From positions 1-31,873 of the IMG/VR virus record IMGVR_UViG_3300008117_000484: a stretch of DNA of 31,873 nt. One strand, written 5' to 3'. Position 1 is the stretch's first letter; each line of letters starts with the position of its first letter. The notes under the pieces are model-generated. The model was not told the origin of the DNA and searched no databases. It worked only from the letters and a program-made list of their open reading frames with translations. This document shows, one piece after another, positions 2,895 to 29,679 of this stretch. The DNA is from a virus. A program made the position numbers and the translations under genes.

Positions 2895-4394
2895 TTATTC
2901 ACCTACCCATCTTGCCTGAAACCAAGACCTTCCTTCGTATTGCGATCTTGAATTAGCCGCTCCACCAACATTTACAACGTTTATGAAATCAGTTGAACCA
3001 TTTAGATACACAATTTTTGTTACCTGTTGGGCCACTACACCAAAAGCACCAGCAGTAACAACAATTCCATTATTTTTCTTAATTGCCATAGCCGCTTCAA
3101 CATTGTTTAATCTATATACATCATAGGCTGCAGTAATTTCCCAATAACCAGCCTTCTGCGGAGTAAATGTATAAGTTGAAGTATTAAACCAACTACTTGA
3201 TACATTAACCGTATTATTCACAACACTATATCTACAAGGGTCTTCAGTAAATGAACCCGGTAAGGTATAAGTAACATTTGCGTATGCTTCAAGTAAATAA
3301 AGAGTTGGTGCAAGATTTGTTGATACACCATTTCCTAAAGTAGTCAAATCAAAATATCCACCTCTAGCGTTTCCACCCTGTTCAAAAATTCTTAATCTAT
3401 TTTGATAAGAATCAATTGTAATACCACTACCTGTAAGTGAGTTATTTGTAATTGATTTTGCTAATAGAATTTCTCCACCCTCATCCCCACTACCAGTTCC
3501 AATTTGTAATGCTGATGTTGTTATTATATTCAATGAACCACTTACTATTACTGAACCCGTAATATTTTGTGTTGTTGAAATTGAACCAGTTGTAATTAAT
3601 CCTATATAATCTACTAAACCACTTGAACCACTACTACCACTTGTTCCTGAAGTACCACTAGTTCCAGATGTACCATTATTAACAGTTACGGTTGGAGTTA
3701 ATTGTGTAATTTCATAACTAGCGTATCCACCATTGACTGTAATTGTATTATTTGTAGTTTGTCTTAATTCATATGTGGTATTTACCGAAGGTGTTACATA
3801 ATGAGTTGCGACTATTGTTGAAGAAACTTGAGTTCCACTTGTTACCGCTTCACCAAACGCTTCCACACCAACGTATGTACTATTTGTTACATCGTACCAT
3901 CTAAAAGTACCCCAACTAGAACTTGATTCAAATCTTCTAATAATTGCTTCTAGTTTATAGGTATTACCTGATGTTAATGTTACTTGAGTATTTGAACCTT
4001 TTGTAATTAAAGAACCATTTGATGCATTAGTCGTTTGGAAAATTACAGCAGTACCGTTACCGACACTACCCTGATTTGCATTGTTCGAAGCAAAAATATA
4101 TGAGGGACTTAAAGTAGTTGTTGCAACTCCTGATGGACTTGTTCCTGATGAACCTGATGAACCACTTGAACCAGAAGTACCTGATGTACCAGAAGTCCCA
4201 CTTGTTCCGTTTCCTGAAGTTCCACTAGTACCCGATGTACCATTTATACCACTAGTTCCAGATGTACCCGAAGTACCATTCACCACATATGACCTATCTA
4301 TCTCCCAATAATTTCCATTGAAAATATAATACGGTGAACTACCGCTTTGATATGTTTGACCTGATATTGGTGAAGATGGAAAATTTAATGCCAT
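2895..4394 (-). CDS. Collagen-like tail fibre with C1q/TNF-like domains
   Basis: 499 residues. The N-terminus MALNFPSSPISGQTY followed by a Tyr/Trp-rich stretch is a common start of fibre proteins in marine T4-like phages. Next comes a GTS-type collagen-like block (about residues 40-88), a beta-rich domain (about 95-235), a short second GTS block (about 240-258), and a C-terminal beta-rich domain of about 230 residues. The last part (AGYWEITAAYDV, then AIKKNNGIVV) looks like the jelly-roll of C1q/TNF-like heads. It is most likely a trimeric receptor-binding fibre. The start lies 16 nt after the preceding stop, with no exact TATTTATA box, so it is probably cotranscribed with 4411-6882. Confidence 0.8.
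   Translation of the reverse strand: MALNFPSSPISGQTYQSGSSPYYIFNGNYWEIDRSYVVNGTSGTSGTSGINGTSGTSGTSGNGTSGTSGTSGTSGSSGSSGSSGTSPSGVATTTLSPSYIFASNNANQGSVGNGTAVIFQTTNASNGSLITKGSNTQVTLTSGNTYKLEAIIRRFESSSSWGTFRWYDVTNSTYVGVEAFGEAVTSGTQVSSTIVATHYVTPSVNTTYELRQTTNNTITVNGGYASYEITQLTPTVTVNNGTSGTSGTSGTSGSSGSSGLVDYIGLITTGSISTTQNITGSVIVSGSLNIITTSALQIGTGSGDEGGEILLAKSITNNSLTGSGITIDSYQNRLRIFEQGGNARGGYFDLTTLGNGVSTNLAPTLYLLEAYANVTYTLPGSFTEDPCRYSVVNNTVNVSSSWFNTSTYTFTPQKAGYWEITAAYDVYRLNNVEAAMAIKKNNGIVVTAGAFGVVAQQVTKIVYLNGSTDFINVVNVGGAANSRSQYEGRSWFQARWVGE
3617..3687 (-). repeat. Short collagen-like GTS/GSS repeat
   Basis: Encodes about 24 residues of G-T-S and G-S-S triplets between two beta-rich domains of the fibre. 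Boundaries are approximate. Confidence 0.75.
4135..4280 (-). repeat. Collagen-like GTS/GSS repeat
   Basis: Encodes about 49 residues of Gly-X-Y triplets, mainly G-T-S, G-S-S, G-I-N and G-N, with one break in register. Boundaries are approximate. Confidence 0.75.
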
Positions 4395-4410
4395 TTATTA
4401 ATTTATATTT

Positions 4411-6882
4411 TTATTCAATTATTACGTTTCCAAATATTTTACCTGGTACATTTGTTGGGTCACAATAAATGTGTAAGGAATCAAATTGATTTATTGTTAA
4501 TCCTGAGAATACCCAAGTTCCAACTGTATTTGCGGTTAATGAAACTGAAGATGAAGTAATTAATGTTGCACTTGAAAAGGCAACACCATCGGCATTTTTT
4601 GCAACTCCAACAACCACATTATTAGGACCAGCGGCGTCTTGTCTTAAATAAACTGTTACTTTACTCAATAAGTTTGTTGTTGCCATGAACGCCGTTCTAT
4701 AGTTAGGTGCCGAATCATCATCCGATAATCTTGTCATAGATGTAAAATAAAACGCAGATGCTAAACTTCTATCGGTCGCAACAAATAATCTTATTGTTCC
4801 TTTTAATGTTGCACCTGGTGCTGCATACCAACTATCACTACCACTATTATATGTTAAAAGATATTGGTCCAAGGAACCAGTAATATTATCATTAACATCA
4901 CTTAATTGATATAATCTACTTGGACTTGTACCTGAAGTACCACTAGTACCAGTTGAACCTGACGTTCCACTTGTACCAGAGGTTCCTGAACTACTACCTA
5001 CAGCAACACCAACTTGTTTTAATAGAATAATAACTGACGGTGATGATGGCCTCGTAGGTGTTGTTTGTACATCAATTGCTGTTAATTGTACGTGGTTTTG
5101 GTCGGCAGACGCGTATAGTTGTACGTAGTCACCCGCATTTAAATCCAAAATATATGGAACAAACGGTAATTGATATGCACTATTTGATACTAATGTTATT
5201 GTGGAGGTAGTTCCTGTTACAGGTACTCCATTTATTGCTATCCAAAAGGAAACGTCTGTAGAAGTCCCTCCTTGTGTTTTTTCAACTTGTGCTGAAAATC
5301 CAAATTCGTACTGACCATCATATGGAACTGTGAATTTATTTCCATCAACTAATGTTATACCATATTGATAATCTATAGTGTTTCCTGATATAATAGTTGC
5401 GGAGTTTTCACCTATCAATTGATTTGTGGTGTCTGAATATTGTGCCGCCCAATTTGCGATACCAGCACCACTAGAACCCGCAGCACCACTTGTACCCGAA
5501 CTTCCACTTGTACCGGAAGTACCAGATTGTCCGCTAGTACCTGATGTACCATCAATACCACTAGTTCCAGAAGTCCCATCTATACCCGAAGTGCCAGATG
5601 TCCCATCAACACCTGATGTACCACTAGACCCACTTTCACCGCTTGTACCTGAAGAACCTGACTCACCTGATGTACCACTTGTACCTGAAGAGCCTGACGT
5701 TCCAGAAGTTCCATTACTACCAATACCTGATGTTCCACTAGAACCTGAAGTTCCAGATGTTCCGTCTATTCCTGAGGTACCAGATGAACCACTAGTACCA
5801 CTTGTTCCGACACCCGATGTACCAGATGTACCATTTGTACCTGATAAAGTTGGATTTGTAGGTACCCACTCTTCGTTTGTATATAAAATGTATGTACTAC
5901 CCTCAATACTATTAAACCATAAAGAACCTGTTGTTTGACCTGTCGGTTCAAAATCTGAAATAATTACACTCGAACCTAATCCTGATGTTCCTGAAGTACC
6001 GTTTGTACCATTGATACCACTTGTACCGGATGAACCGCTAGTACCCGATGTACCATTTGAACCAACTAAACCATTCGCACCTGATGTACCACTACTTCCT
6101 GATGACCCTGAAGTTCCGCTCGAACCATTATCACCTGATGTTCCTGAAGTACCATTACTTCCTGACACACCCGAACTACCACTGGTACCTGACGTTCCAT
6201 TATTACCACTAGTACCTGATGTTCCATCTATACCTGAACTTCCTGATGTTCCACTCGTACCATTTCCTGAAGAACCGCTAGTTCCTGAAGAACCATTACT
6301 TCCTGAAATACCCGACGTACCACTTGTTCCATCTATACCTGAGGTGCCGGATGTTCCGTTTATACCCGATGAACCAGATGTTCCACTACTTCCATTTGAA
6401 CCTGATAATCCACTTGTACCAGAAGAACCGTTACTTCCCGATGTACCTGAACTTCCGTTAGAACCCGAAGTACCACTAGTACCGTTTAATCCATCTTGTC
6501 CACTACTTCCTGATGTTCCTGAGCTACCATTAGAACCTGATGTACCGCTTGTACCGTTTTGACCACTAGTTCCTGAACTACCCGAACTTCCACTTAATCC
6601 ACTTGTACCTGAACTACCAGAAGAACCGGATATTCCTGAAGTACCACTACTTCCATTTGAACCTGAACTACCTGAGGAACCTGAAGTTCCATTAGAACCA
6701 TTTGAACCTGAGGTACCACTAGTTCCACTTGTACCAGATGTTCCTGAAGTTTGTGATGTACCTAATATTGTCTCACGAACTACTTTATATGTGGTTGTTT
6801 CACCACTATTATTCATTATAAAGTAAGCACCTGTGGTGTCTCCCGTGTATAATGGTAATTCGTTAATTTTTTTATTGTTCAT
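4411..6882 (-). CDS. Long collagen-like tail fibre with C1q-like domain
   Basis: 823 residues, the largest protein fully in the window. Residues 1-40 form an anchor-like N-terminus (KINELPLYTGDTTG, then NNSGET) related to that of the protein at 1-636. Residues 41 to about 302 are Gly-X-Y triplets dominated by GTS, GSS, GSN and GID with no proline. A short domain ending in LWFNSIEGSTYILYTNEEW follows; similar W/Y modules occur in other phage fibres. A second triplet block covers about 345-473, then comes a C1q/TNF-like beta domain (about 475-612, with YDGQYEFGFSAQV), a third short block, and a C-terminal beta domain of about 140 residues. I infer a trimeric rod-and-head adhesin. A TATTTATC box ends 4 nt before the ATG. 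Confidence 0.82.
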   Translation of the reverse strand: MNNKKINELPLYTGDTTGAYFIMNNSGETTTYKVVRETILGTSQTSGTSGTSGTSGTSGSNGSNGTSGSSGSSGSNGSSGTSGISGSSGSSGTSGLSGSSGSSGTSGQNGTSGTSGSNGSSGTSGSSGQDGLNGTSGTSGSNGSSGTSGSNGSSGTSGLSGSNGSSGTSGSSGINGTSGTSGIDGTSGTSGISGSNGSSGTSGSSGNGTSGTSGSSGIDGTSGTSGNNGTSGTSGSSGVSGSNGTSGTSGDNGSSGTSGSSGSSGTSGANGLVGSNGTSGTSGSSGTSGINGTNGTSGTSGLGSSVIISDFEPTGQTTGSLWFNSIEGSTYILYTNEEWVPTNPTLSGTNGTSGTSGVGTSGTSGSSGTSGIDGTSGTSGSSGTSGIGSNGTSGTSGSSGTSGTSGESGSSGTSGESGSSGTSGVDGTSGTSGIDGTSGTSGIDGTSGTSGQSGTSGTSGSSGTSGAAGSSGAGIANWAAQYSDTTNQLIGENSATIISGNTIDYQYGITLVDGNKFTVPYDGQYEFGFSAQVEKTQGGTSTDVSFWIAINGVPVTGTTSTITLVSNSAYQLPFVPYILDLNAGDYVQLYASADQNHVQLTAIDVQTTPTRPSSPSVIILLKQVGVAVGSSSGTSGTSGTSGSTGTSGTSGTSPSRLYQLSDVNDNITGSLDQYLLTYNSGSDSWYAAPGATLKGTIRLFVATDRSLASAFYFTSMTRLSDDDSAPNYRTAFMATTNLLSKVTVYLRQDAAGPNNVVVGVAKNADGVAFSSATLITSSSVSLTANTVGTWVFSGLTINQFDSLHIYCDPTNVPGKIFGNVIIE
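4920..4998 (-). repeat. Short collagen-like GTS repeat (block 3)
   Basis: Encodes about 26 residues of GTS/GST triplets between the C1q-like and C-terminal domains. Boundaries are approximate. Confidence 0.7.
5465..5850 (-). repeat. Collagen-like repeat (block 2)
   Basis: About 128 codons of Gly-X-Y triplets (GTS, GSS, GID, GES, GVD). The amino-acid repeat is strict but the codons vary from unit to unit. Boundaries are approximate. Confidence 0.85.
5977..6762 (-). repeat. Collagen-like repeat (block 1)
   Basis: About 262 codons of Gly-X-Y triplets, mostly GTS, GSS, GSN, GIN, GID and GLS, with occasional two-residue phase breaks (NG). No proline occurs in the block. Boundaries are approximate. 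Confidence 0.88.
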
Positions 6883-27507: not shown

Positions 27508-28191
27508 TTATTTGGATAAAAATCTATCTAAACCTCCCATCAATTTTACCATTCTATCATCCAACGATGGTTTCTTTTCTTCGGATTCTTGATACTGCTC
27601 TCTTTCCGAAGGGTCAGAAAAAACATACGCTCCTGGTGTTGATGGTGATGATACTAAATCAAAACAAACCAATTCGAAGTCGTCCTGAACTATGTTTTGA
27701 CCTTTAACGTTTTTAAGTGAACCCACACCACGAGAAGATATTCCTAAAGTGGCTCCATTCATTAATAACATTGCGGCTTGGTCACCCTTAGTTGATACAA
27801 TACCCATTTTTCTCCAACCTGGAGAAGTGAATAATTTTATTTTACCCATTAGGATTTTACCATCCCACCATGTTTCAAGAATTGAATGTGAAACTCTATC
27901 TAAATCGATAAGTGAAGAAGAAGGATGATTTAATTCATTTAAAGCTCCTCCTTTTTTAATAAGTGTTTGGTATTTTTCGTTTTCTCTTTTTAATAAAACT
28001 TCAGGATAGATTCTTCCGTTTTTATTTGGAGTGTCGTATTTTTGTAACACAGCATAAAGAATTAGGTCTTGTGAAAAGTCCATTTCTTTAGCCTCTCTAA
28101 TAATTTGTTTATTCTCTTCTGGTGAAACGTGACCAGCATCGTATTCAATTAAAATACCATGTCCGGTATCTTTCGGTCCCAATATCTTCAT
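27508..28191 (-). CDS. 21: Prohead maturation protease, gp21-like
   Basis: 227 residues, the size of T4 gp21. NGRIYPEVLL precedes LNELNHP (His89, catalytic candidate), then RVSHSILETWWDGKILMGKI, and TLGISSRGVG (Ser152 or Ser153, nucleophile candidate), as in the herpes-type/HK97-type prohead serine proteases that include gp21. It cleaves scaffold and capsid precursors inside the prohead at hydrophobic-x-Glu sites in T4. Its neighbours are the unknown 141-residue protein upstream and the scaffold downstream, the canonical T4-like order. A TATTTATA box lies 16 nt before the ATG. Confidence 0.9.
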   Translation of the reverse strand: MKILGPKDTGHGILIEYDAGHVSPEENKQIIREAKEMDFSQDLILYAVLQKYDTPNKNGRIYPEVLLKRENEKYQTLIKKGGALNELNHPSSSLIDLDRVSHSILETWWDGKILMGKIKLFTSPGWRKMGIVSTKGDQAAMLLMNGATLGISSRGVGSLKNVKGQNIVQDDFELVCFDLVSSPSTPGAYVFSDPSEREQYQESEEKKPSLDDRMVKLMGGLDRFLSK

Positions 28192-28229: not shown

Positions 28230-28655
28230 TTATTTTTTGGATTTATGAAAATTGAATAATTTTTTATCTGTCAAACCATTTTCAATCACAGATGTGAGAA
28301 TATCTTTTACGTTATTTTTTACTTCTTTTGTTTTAACATCAAATTGTCTATTCACATACAAAGTAACCTCCATATTCATAAAGGATCTTTTTTCTAATTT
28401 AATTCCTTTAGTTCTGATATCTAAATCAACTATTGATTGTTGTTTAAACAAAGGATTTTTTAAATTATAGATTATTTCTTTAACTCGACGTCGAGATTTG
28501 TATATCATTTCCTCGAAATCATCAGACTCATTTTCTGGTTGTAACCAAGAATTAAATTTCAAATAAATGGTTTTAAGATTTCTAAAATCTACGGTCCCAT
28601 ACCCGATTTTAACATCATTGTACGTCCCTAAAGGGATATACTTTCCGGTTTTCAT
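28230..28655 (-). CDS. Unknown protein of head module
   Basis: 141 residues, basic, mixed alpha/beta, with no recognised family. It contains VDFRNLKTIYLKFNSWLQPE in the N-terminal half and a basic helix (YKSRRRVKEIIYNL) in the middle; the C-terminus is Lys-rich (FNFHKSKK). It sits between the bS21 gene (divergent from it) and the protease gene in the head cluster. There is no exact TATTTATA box in the 102-nt divergent gap before it. A small head assembly or connector protein is possible; no motif supports a specific role. Confidence 0.6.
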   Translation of the reverse strand: MKTGKYIPLGTYNDVKIGYGTVDFRNLKTIYLKFNSWLQPENESDDFEEMIYKSRRRVKEIIYNLKNPLFKQQSIVDLDIRTKGIKLEKRSFMNMEVTLYVNRQFDVKTKEVKNNVKDILTSVIENGLTDKKLFNFHKSKK

Positions 28656-28757
28656 TATTTCAACATATTATAAAATTTTATGGTGTAATTAAAAAATACA
28701 TAAAATTTATTAAAATACCAAAAAAATTTTCATATATTTGTGATATACTTATATTAT
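28656..28757. promoter_or_regulatory. Divergent AT-rich intergenic region
   Basis: 102 nt, almost pure A/T, between the 141-residue gene (minus) and bS21 (plus); the longest gene-free stretch in the window. It holds a TATATTTG -7 box for bS21 (28733-28740). I see no exact late box for the minus-strand gene and no clear -33 TTTG. Confidence 0.5.
28733..28740 (+). promoter_or_regulatory. Host-type -7 box for bS21 gene
   Basis: TATATTTG exactly fits the Bacteroidota TAnnTTTG -7 element, 17 nt before the ATG at 28758. A TTTG at the usual -33 distance is not seen, so the promoter may be weak or activator-dependent. Confidence 0.45.
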
Positions 28758-28949
28758 ATGATTATAATCAATTTAAACAACGAAAAAAATATTGAATCTG
28801 CTTTAAGAACTTATAAACAAAAAGTTCAAAAAACAAAACAAATTCAAAAATTAAGGGAAAGACAAGAGTTTGTAAAACCTTCTGTCAAAAAAAGAAGCCA
28901 ACGTTTAAAAGCTATCTATGTACAACAAATAAAAAATGGTCTTAATTAA
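28758..28949 (+). CDS. rpsU: Ribosomal protein bS21 (phage-encoded)
   Basis: 63 residues. MIIINLNNEKNIESALRTYK, then LRERQEFVKPSVKKRSQ, then KAIYVQQ matches bS21 in order, length and spacing: the short beta start, I-E-x-A-L-(R/K)-x-Y-K helix, R-x-R-Q-x-F-x-K-P-S centre, and K-A-x-Y-x-Q end of Bacteroidota bS21. The ATG at 28758 was chosen because residues before it do not fit the family. bS21 sits near the 3' end of 16S rRNA and, in Bacteroidota, helps hide the anti-Shine-Dalgarno sequence. A phage copy could replace the host protein and favour phage mRNAs. It is the only plus-strand gene in the head region, and its end overlaps a head gene. Confidence 0.92.
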   Translation: MIIINLNNEKNIESALRTYKQKVQKTKQIQKLRERQEFVKPSVKKRSQRLKAIYVQQIKNGLN

Positions 28950-28961
28950 GACCATTTTTTA
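28930..28961. terminator. Perfect palindromic bidirectional terminator
   Basis: A 32-bp perfect palindrome (arms AAAAAATGGTCTTAA and its complement, plus one outer T-A pair). In either direction it makes a hairpin flanked by A-run and T-run. It contains both stop codons and the last codons of the two convergent genes. Confidence 0.82.
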
Positions 28962-29679
28962 ATTCCGATAATCTGAAATAATTATATCTCGAAGGTGACA
29001 TTTCATTCACCTCTTTTTTAACACTATCTAATTTATTTTTTAATTCTAAATCATTTGATTCTGTTAATAAACTATCAACTTTATTTAAAATTGATTCTTG
29101 TAATTCACTAGTTTTAGTAATTAAATCTTCATGAGAAATTGATAAAATATTTTTCAATTCTTCTTTTTGTGATTCTGATAATGTATTAGAATATAAAACA
29201 TTAAAATTATTAGTTAATACAGCGTTTAATAATGATTCATTAGGAACTATTGTTATTTTTTTAGTTTCCATGATTTCTTTATTAGTTGTTAAATGTTCTA
29301 CCAATTTCTTTTTTGCAATAACTTTCTTTTCGATATTTGATAACGTGTCTTTATCCATTAATTGGTCTAATGATTCATATAAACTATTCGTTGTTATTTC
29401 AACATCACCTAACTTTTTATCTAAAGATTCACAAAATTCCAGTAAACCATTTTTTTGTTGATTAATCATAGTCTCAACGCCGTCAACAAACAATTTTGCG
29501 GTTTCTTTATCTTCAATGTATTTGTTCTCTATTTCTTCGTAAAACAAATACATTTCTTTAAATTCTTTATTTTCTTTTATAGTTTTTAAAATATCTTTCA
29601 TCTCACTTTTATCTTCTTTCTTATAAGATTCAGTAAGTTTATTCAATATTTTACTTTTTACGGTACCAAACTTATTCAT
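28942..29679 (-). CDS. Unknown helical head-module protein
   Basis: 245 residues, almost entirely helical and Lys/Glu/Leu/Asn-rich, with coiled-coil-like stretches (for example FVDGVETMINQQKNGLLEFC and SLYESLDQLMDKDTLSNIEK). It follows the portal gene at once and precedes the protease, the place where T4 has small prohead core genes (67, 68), so a scaffold- or portal-associated core protein is my best inference. No sequence motif proves it. The N-terminus MNKFGTVKSKILNKLTES resembles other short amphipathic N-termini in this genome. Its last five residues KNGLN are identical to those of bS21 because both are encoded by the palindrome at 28930-28961. Confidence 0.65.
   Translation of the reverse strand: MNKFGTVKSKILNKLTESYKKEDKSEMKDILKTIKENKEFKEMYLFYEEIENKYIEDKETAKLFVDGVETMINQQKNGLLEFCESLDKKLGDVEITTNSLYESLDQLMDKDTLSNIEKKVIAKKKLVEHLTTNKEIMETKKITIVPNESLLNAVLTNNFNVLYSNTLSESQKEELKNILSISHEDLITKTSELQESILNKVDSLLTESNDLELKNKLDSVKKEVNEMSPSRYNYFRLSELKNGLN

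What the first reader, a model, noticed from the sequence alone, without database searches (positions are those of the whole stretch)
28758..28949. Phage bS21 in a genome without Shine-Dalgarno sites
The 63-residue product is a clear bS21. Phage bS21 genes are known from metagenomic and cultured phages. In Bacteroidota, bS21 takes part in hiding the anti-Shine-Dalgarno tail of 16S rRNA. Here it coexists with leaderless-type late promoters, TAATG-type coupling and no visible Shine-Dalgarno sequences. It may therefore re-tune host ribosomes toward leaderless or A/U-rich phage starts. It has a host-type -7 box rather than the late box, so it could be made before the structural genes.
Basis: partly seen in the sequence, partly recalled or inferred. 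Interest (0 to 1): 0.78.

Follow-up and report, generated by a model that had tools for sequence, protein, structure and literature searches.

The report
Phage bS21 freed from host feedback
A virus of lake bacteria carries its own copy of the ribosomal protein bS21, already known from this virus group; new here is that the viral gene lacks the control signal by which flavobacteria limit their own bS21, and that it shares a two-way transcription stop hairpin with the gene facing it.

Summary
The 63-aa bS21 at 28758-28949 is real: Pfam PF01165 47 bits, best solved relative F. johnsoniae bS21, ASD-contacting Tyr54 kept. It lies inverted inside the T4-like portal/protease/capsid cassette. Chen et al. 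2022 described exactly this kind of phage, its bS21, its Bacteroidetes hosts and its late transcription, so the gene is a new member of a known kind. Three things appear new. (1) The anti-SD-pairing leader found on all 66 distinct flavobacterial rpsU leaders tested (median -19.5 kcal/mol) is absent from all 37 phage bS21 leaders (median +0.6): the phage keeps the protein but not the feedback. (2) bS21 and its convergent neighbour end inside one shared covarying hairpin that encodes KNGLN at both C-termini, so bS21's conserved tail need not reflect ribosome binding. (3) One relative has lost bS21. Best reading: a late, feedback-blind replacement bS21 that keeps ribosomes closed to SD mRNAs. Retuning toward leaderless starts is untested.

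The parts
28758..28949 (+). phage bS21 gene, 63 aa
   Evidence: PF01165 47.2 bits vs cut-off 27; PHROG 21469 S21; PDB 7jil E 5e-13; Tyr54 conserved; dN/dS about 0.06-0.29 from NG86 values against eight relatives
28745..28753 (+). late-type promoter box ATACTTATA, ending 4 nt before ATG
   Evidence: matrix built from 46 late boxes of a 335-kb relative: 7.3 bits, reached by about 1% of random positions; start at -13 in 26 of 38 distinct relatives
28733..28740 (+). host-type -7-like box TATATTTG
   Evidence: kept in 32 of 44 distinct upstream regions; TTG -33 element at the right distance in only 7 of 44
28930..28961 (.). hairpin, bidirectional intrinsic-terminator-like, overlapping both stop codons; both proteins end KNGLN
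   Evidence: -14.9 kcal/mol, z -4.8; terminator scan; compensatory synonymous changes
28942..29679 (-). convergent neighbour (bS21_CN of Chen et al.), 245 aa, all-helical, possible prohead core protein; overlaps bS21 by 8 bp
   Evidence: convergent 4- or 8-bp overlap in the window and all 80 bS21 loci; AlphaFold pLDDT 80, all helix; no PDB fold match; position between portal and protease
28230..28655 (-). divergent neighbour, 141 aa, unknown function
   Evidence: found about 100 bp upstream of bS21 in every locus with enough sequence; no Pfam or PHROG match
28691..28721 (-). host-type promoter of the divergent gene, TTG-N20-TATTTTTT
   Evidence: TTG-N18-22-TAnnTTT in 37 of 44 distinct intergenic regions, spacing 20 in 33; 4.6% of random windows; kept in L297, where bS21 is absent
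27508..28191 (-). prohead protease (T4 gp21-like)
   Evidence: PF03420 78 bits
29682..31349 (-). portal protein (T4 gp20-like)
   Evidence: PF07230 259 bits
24401..26167 (-). major capsid protein (T4 gp23-like)
   Evidence: PF07068 253 bits
16125..16826 (+). late sigma factor-like gene (gp55-like)
   Evidence: PHROG 234, E 1e-4

Best explanation
A bS21 gene, probably of flavobacterial origin, was taken up once by an ancestor of these T4-like Bacteroidota phages and sits inverted in the head-gene cassette under a phage late box. Its product replaces or tops up host bS21 on 30S subunits late in infection and keeps the anti-SD tail sequestered (Tyr54 kept), the state that favours SD-less mRNAs, which is what phage mRNAs are. 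Because the phage gene has no SD, it escapes the host circuit in which bS21-depleted ribosomes boost bS21 synthesis; phage bS21 should also damp host rpsU through that circuit. A shared two-way terminator inside the overlapping gene ends insulates the inverted gene from the head operon. Shown here: protein identity, Tyr54, monophyly, lack of SD, late box, hairpin with synonymous covariation. Inferred: promoter and terminator activity, donor lineage, ribosome incorporation, feedback bypass, effect on host rpsU.
For: bS21 identity and Tyr54. Phage bS21 are one clade (100/100), attached next to Flavobacterium rows on a long branch. Anti-SD pairing: flavobacterial rpsU leaders 66/66 at or below -16.8 kcal/mol, phage bS21 0/37 at or below -7. 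Late box at the modal late position; late transcription published (PMC9723584). Hairpin covariation: 91/91 distinct rows stay complementary at two positions, each with about 5 changes (at least 3 forced) on the neighbour's tree, all at third codon positions of Asn and Gly codons in both genes. bS21-lacking F. johnsoniae ribosomes favour rpsU and do worse on SD-less mRNAs (PMC9976891).
Against: No data on incorporation of this protein into ribosomes. Host not identified for this contig; rpsU of many other Bacteroidia also lacks a strong SD (only 4 of 30 at or below -7), so the feedback bypass matters only if the host is of the flavobacterial kind. Phage genes in general lack SDs, so the lack on bS21 may follow from general phage mRNA design. 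L297, nested inside the clade, has no bS21 beside the neighbour gene, so bS21 is dispensable at least at that locus. The anti-SD sequence used in the pairing test was supplied from memory.
Confidence: 0.55

Rival explanations
1. Specialised ribosomes: phage bS21, diverged in its N-terminal helix, makes 30S subunits prefer phage (leaderless or A/U-rich) starts over host SD-less starts.
For: Proposed by Chen et al. 2022 from residue divergence; phage clade on a long branch; late boxes sit so close to ATG that leaders would be near zero under T4 geometry (inference).
Against: Host mRNAs are SD-less too, so little separates them from phage mRNAs; no initiation data; the host already translates SD-less mRNAs with its own bS21 (PMC9976891).
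Confidence: 0.2
2. Simple dosage: the phage supplies bS21 because it is lost from ribosomes or no longer made after host shut-off, with no change in mRNA choice and no role for feedback escape.
For: bS21 is a late-assembling, exchangeable protein (PMC9976891); purifying selection; late box.
Against: Does not by itself explain why bS21 rather than other exchangeable proteins is carried; not otherwise excluded.
Confidence: 0.2
3. bS21 is packaged or acts in head assembly, or outside the ribosome, given its place among head genes.
For: Location in the head cassette; co-conservation and shared terminator with a neighbour that may be a prohead core protein.
Against: The gene is inverted with its own promoter-like region; ribosomal residues including Tyr54 are conserved; no packaging evidence.
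Confidence: 0.05

Closest known systems
bS21-encoding freshwater Bacteroidetes myophages, clades a-e (Chen et al. 2022, PMC9723584)
   Same: inverted bS21 in the TerL/portal/protease/MCP region, flanked by two hypothetical protein families, Tyr54, Bacteroidetes hosts, late transcription
   Different: that paper's text has no mention of promoter, terminator, hairpin or rpsU; the SD contrast with host rpsU, the late box and the shared terminator are added here; its reading of the conserved C-terminus as a ribosome-binding feature is weakened
Flavobacterium johnsoniae bS21 / rpsU autoregulation (McNutt et al. 2023, PMC9976891)
   Same: same protein family, Tyr54, ASD sequestration expected
   Different: the phage gene lacks the extended SD that drives host feedback
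T4 head gene cassette and gp55-type late promoters
   Same: portal, protease and capsid gene set; short late box near the start; gp55-like sigma gene
   Different: box reads TATTTATA, the reverse complement of T4's TATAAATA (T4 box from memory)

Membership tests
bS21 ribosomal protein (PF01165) | profile match over curated cut-off across the domain | tested here: met
   47.2 bits vs 27, profile 2-54 of 55
bS21 ribosomal protein (PF01165) | incorporation into the 30S subunit | not testable with these tools
   needs ribosome purification
Bacteroidota-type ASD-sequestering bS21 | aromatic residue at position 54 | tested here: met
   Tyr54 aligned with F. johnsoniae; Tyr at this place in the relatives listed
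SD-autoregulated rpsU | extended SD with pairing below -13 kcal/mol | tested here: not met
   0 of 37 phage leaders at or below -7; all 66 distinct flavobacterial rpsU leaders at or below -16.8
Chen et al. bS21 phage clades | bS21 inverted in the TerL/portal/protease/MCP cassette with a convergent neighbour | tested here: met
Chen et al. bS21 phage clades | placement in clades a-e by TerL phylogeny | not tested
   the candidate terminase fragment is cut by the window end and TerL sequences of that paper were not fetched
Intrinsic terminator, bidirectional | stable stem followed by a T run on both strands | tested here: met
Intrinsic terminator, bidirectional | termination activity | not testable with these tools
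   needs RNA 3'-end mapping
Phage late promoter | late-type box at the modal late position | tested here: met
   one base off consensus in the window
Phage late promoter | late TSS at the expected place | not testable with these tools
   needs TSS mapping

The most novel reading that the evidence does not exclude
The phage makes an autoregulation-blind bS21 that both silences host rpsU through the host's own ASD circuit and yields ribosomes that prefer near-leaderless phage late mRNAs: a virus-made specialised ribosome in Bacteroidota.
Probability: 0.15. Interest if true: 0.85.

Novelty: new member of a known kind. Interest (0 to 1): 0.5.

Why it matters
bS21 is by far the ribosomal protein most often carried by phages (PMC9976891), and why is unsettled. 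The contrast found here, an SD on every flavobacterial rpsU tested and on no phage bS21, gives a direct, testable reason: a feedback-blind supply of bS21. The shared coding terminator also warns against reading C-terminal conservation of phage bS21 as a ribosome-binding signature.

Tried and rejected
CCAAAA upstream of bS21 as a bS21 operator: rejected; read on the other strand it is the -33 element of the divergent gene's promoter, and it stays in L297, where bS21 is gone. Host-type box as the only bS21 promoter: rejected. KNGLN tail as purely a protein constraint: weakened by synonymous covariation and by L331-L334, where the hairpin in the bS21 direction is lost and bS21 ends KIKK; but Flavobacterium bS21 tails (KDSLE) resemble KNGL, so a protein origin of the motif stays possible. 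A first regex count scored L331-L334 as lacking bS21; reading the DNA showed a shortened bS21 with KQSV. Structure of the neighbour gave no informative PDB match and only uncharacterised phage proteins in BFVD. tblastn of bS21 and of the neighbour against the phage collection found nothing at E 1e-3 and 1e-2. The first genome-contig scan with the phage bS21 alone found no relative.

Full report
Observation. The ORF 28758-28949 (+) is a 63-residue bS21: PF01165 47.2 bits against a cut-off of 27, the only match in this record, PHROG 21469, best solved relative F. johnsoniae bS21 7jil, E 5e-13. Tyr54, the residue that stacks on the anti-SD tail (PMC9723584), is kept. The gene lies inverted between the portal side and the protease side of a T4-like head cassette.

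Known background. Chen et al. 2022 (PMC9723584) describe this kind of phage: bS21 inverted in the TerL, portal, protease and MCP region, Bacteroidetes hosts, Tyr54 or another aromatic residue, late transcription together with a convergent neighbour (bS21_CN, here 28942-29679). The finding is therefore a member of a published group; its clade by TerL was not tested.

Promoter. In a 335-kb relative (G001, from L055; genes called here with a simple longest-ORF caller) TATTTATA occurs in 53 near-upstream regions against 2 further upstream, with modal position -12 to -5 before ATG. A matrix from 46 such sites, bS21 left out, scores the window's ATACTTATA at 7.3 bits, reached by about 1% of random positions, and 36 of 38 distinct bS21 upstream regions exceed the 95th percentile of random positions. 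The two exceptions (L022, L023 types) carry an ATATTTAT at -27. Many of these regions are related, so the count is not a count of independent events. The host-type TATATTTG is kept in 32 of 44 distinct regions and has a TTG at -33 distance in only 7. If the T4 geometry applies (own knowledge), late mRNAs would start at or next to the ATG; this is inference.

Shine-Dalgarno contrast. Pairing of the 24 nt upstream with an anti-SD tail CACCUCCUUUCU gives a median of -19.5 kcal/mol for 66 distinct flavobacterial rpsU leaders (all at or below -16.8) and +0.6 for 37 phage bS21 leaders (none at or below -7). The rpsU set is the 80 best matches, nearly all Flavobacteriaceae; four metagenome bins carry other genus labels and are probably mis-binned. 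The anti-SD sequence was supplied from memory, and its match to the rpsU leaders supports it. In 30 rpsU genes from a class-wide draw, taken as the best Pfam scorers and thus not a random sample, only 4 reach -7, so the contrast applies to the flavobacterial kind of host. The phage bS21 clade (100/100) attaches beside Flavobacterium rows on a branch of 3.05 changes per column with 64 columns; the donor is not resolved by that tree. McNutt et al. (PMC9976891) show that ribosomes lacking bS21 favour rpsU through its SD and do worse on SD-less mRNAs; from this the feedback bypass is inferred.

Shared terminator. Both bS21 and the convergent neighbour stop inside one hairpin (28930-28961, -14.9 kcal/mol, z -4.8), with T runs on both strands. 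In the window and 80 loci the two genes overlap by 8 or 4 bp. In 91 distinct neighbour rows two stem positions vary (T-A/A-T and T-A/C-G) and are complementary in every row; each label needs about 5 changes on the neighbour's tree, at least 3 forced by starred branches. The varying positions are third positions of Gly and Asn codons in both genes, so protein selection alone does not explain the pairing. Two rows (L079, L325) have a different stem and were not parsed.

Natural variants. L331-L334 carry a bS21 that ends KIKK with KQSV for KPSV; the hairpin is lost in the bS21 direction and moderate in the neighbour's. L297, nested with L300 and L301 (98/97), has the neighbour, a terminator and the divergent gene's promoter but no bS21 between them; its contig is 12 kb, so a copy elsewhere is not excluded.

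Divergent gene. The CCAAAA block upstream of bS21 reads, on the other strand, as the TTG of a TTG-N20-TAnnTTT promoter for the 141-aa gene: 37 of 44 distinct regions, spacing 20 in 33, against 4.6% of random windows; CACCATAA is present in 44 of 44.

Verdict. Ordinary as a gene find, since the group is published; of interest for the SD contrast and the coding bidirectional terminator. Six paper searches were made; the two key papers were read in part, and one search found no mention of promoter, terminator, hairpin, palindrome, leaderless or rpsU in Chen et al.; supplementary files were not read. So 'new' means not found there.

Noticed in passing
L297:3206-3600: neighbour gene and divergent-gene promoter present, bS21 absent; nested among bS21 carriers, so probably a loss.
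   Followed up: partly
L331-L334, around 3235: bS21 shortened to ...KIKK with KQSV; shared hairpin lost in the bS21 direction.
   Followed up: partly
28678-28685: CACCATAA on the minus strand, present in 44 of 44 distinct intergenic regions just downstream of the divergent gene's -7 box; role unknown.
   Followed up: no
window, upstream of many genes: late box TATTTATA is the reverse complement of T4's TATAAATA (T4 box from memory).
   Followed up: no
2895-6882: two proteins with long GTSGTSG-type repeats, probably tail fibre or adhesin; by eye.
   Followed up: no
691-2847: two proteins with TPTPTP-type repeats; by eye.
   Followed up: no
bS21, 28758-28949 (search): no bS21 of this kind in 50,697 deposited phage records at E 1e-3, so no cultured phage was found in that collection.
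   Followed up: no
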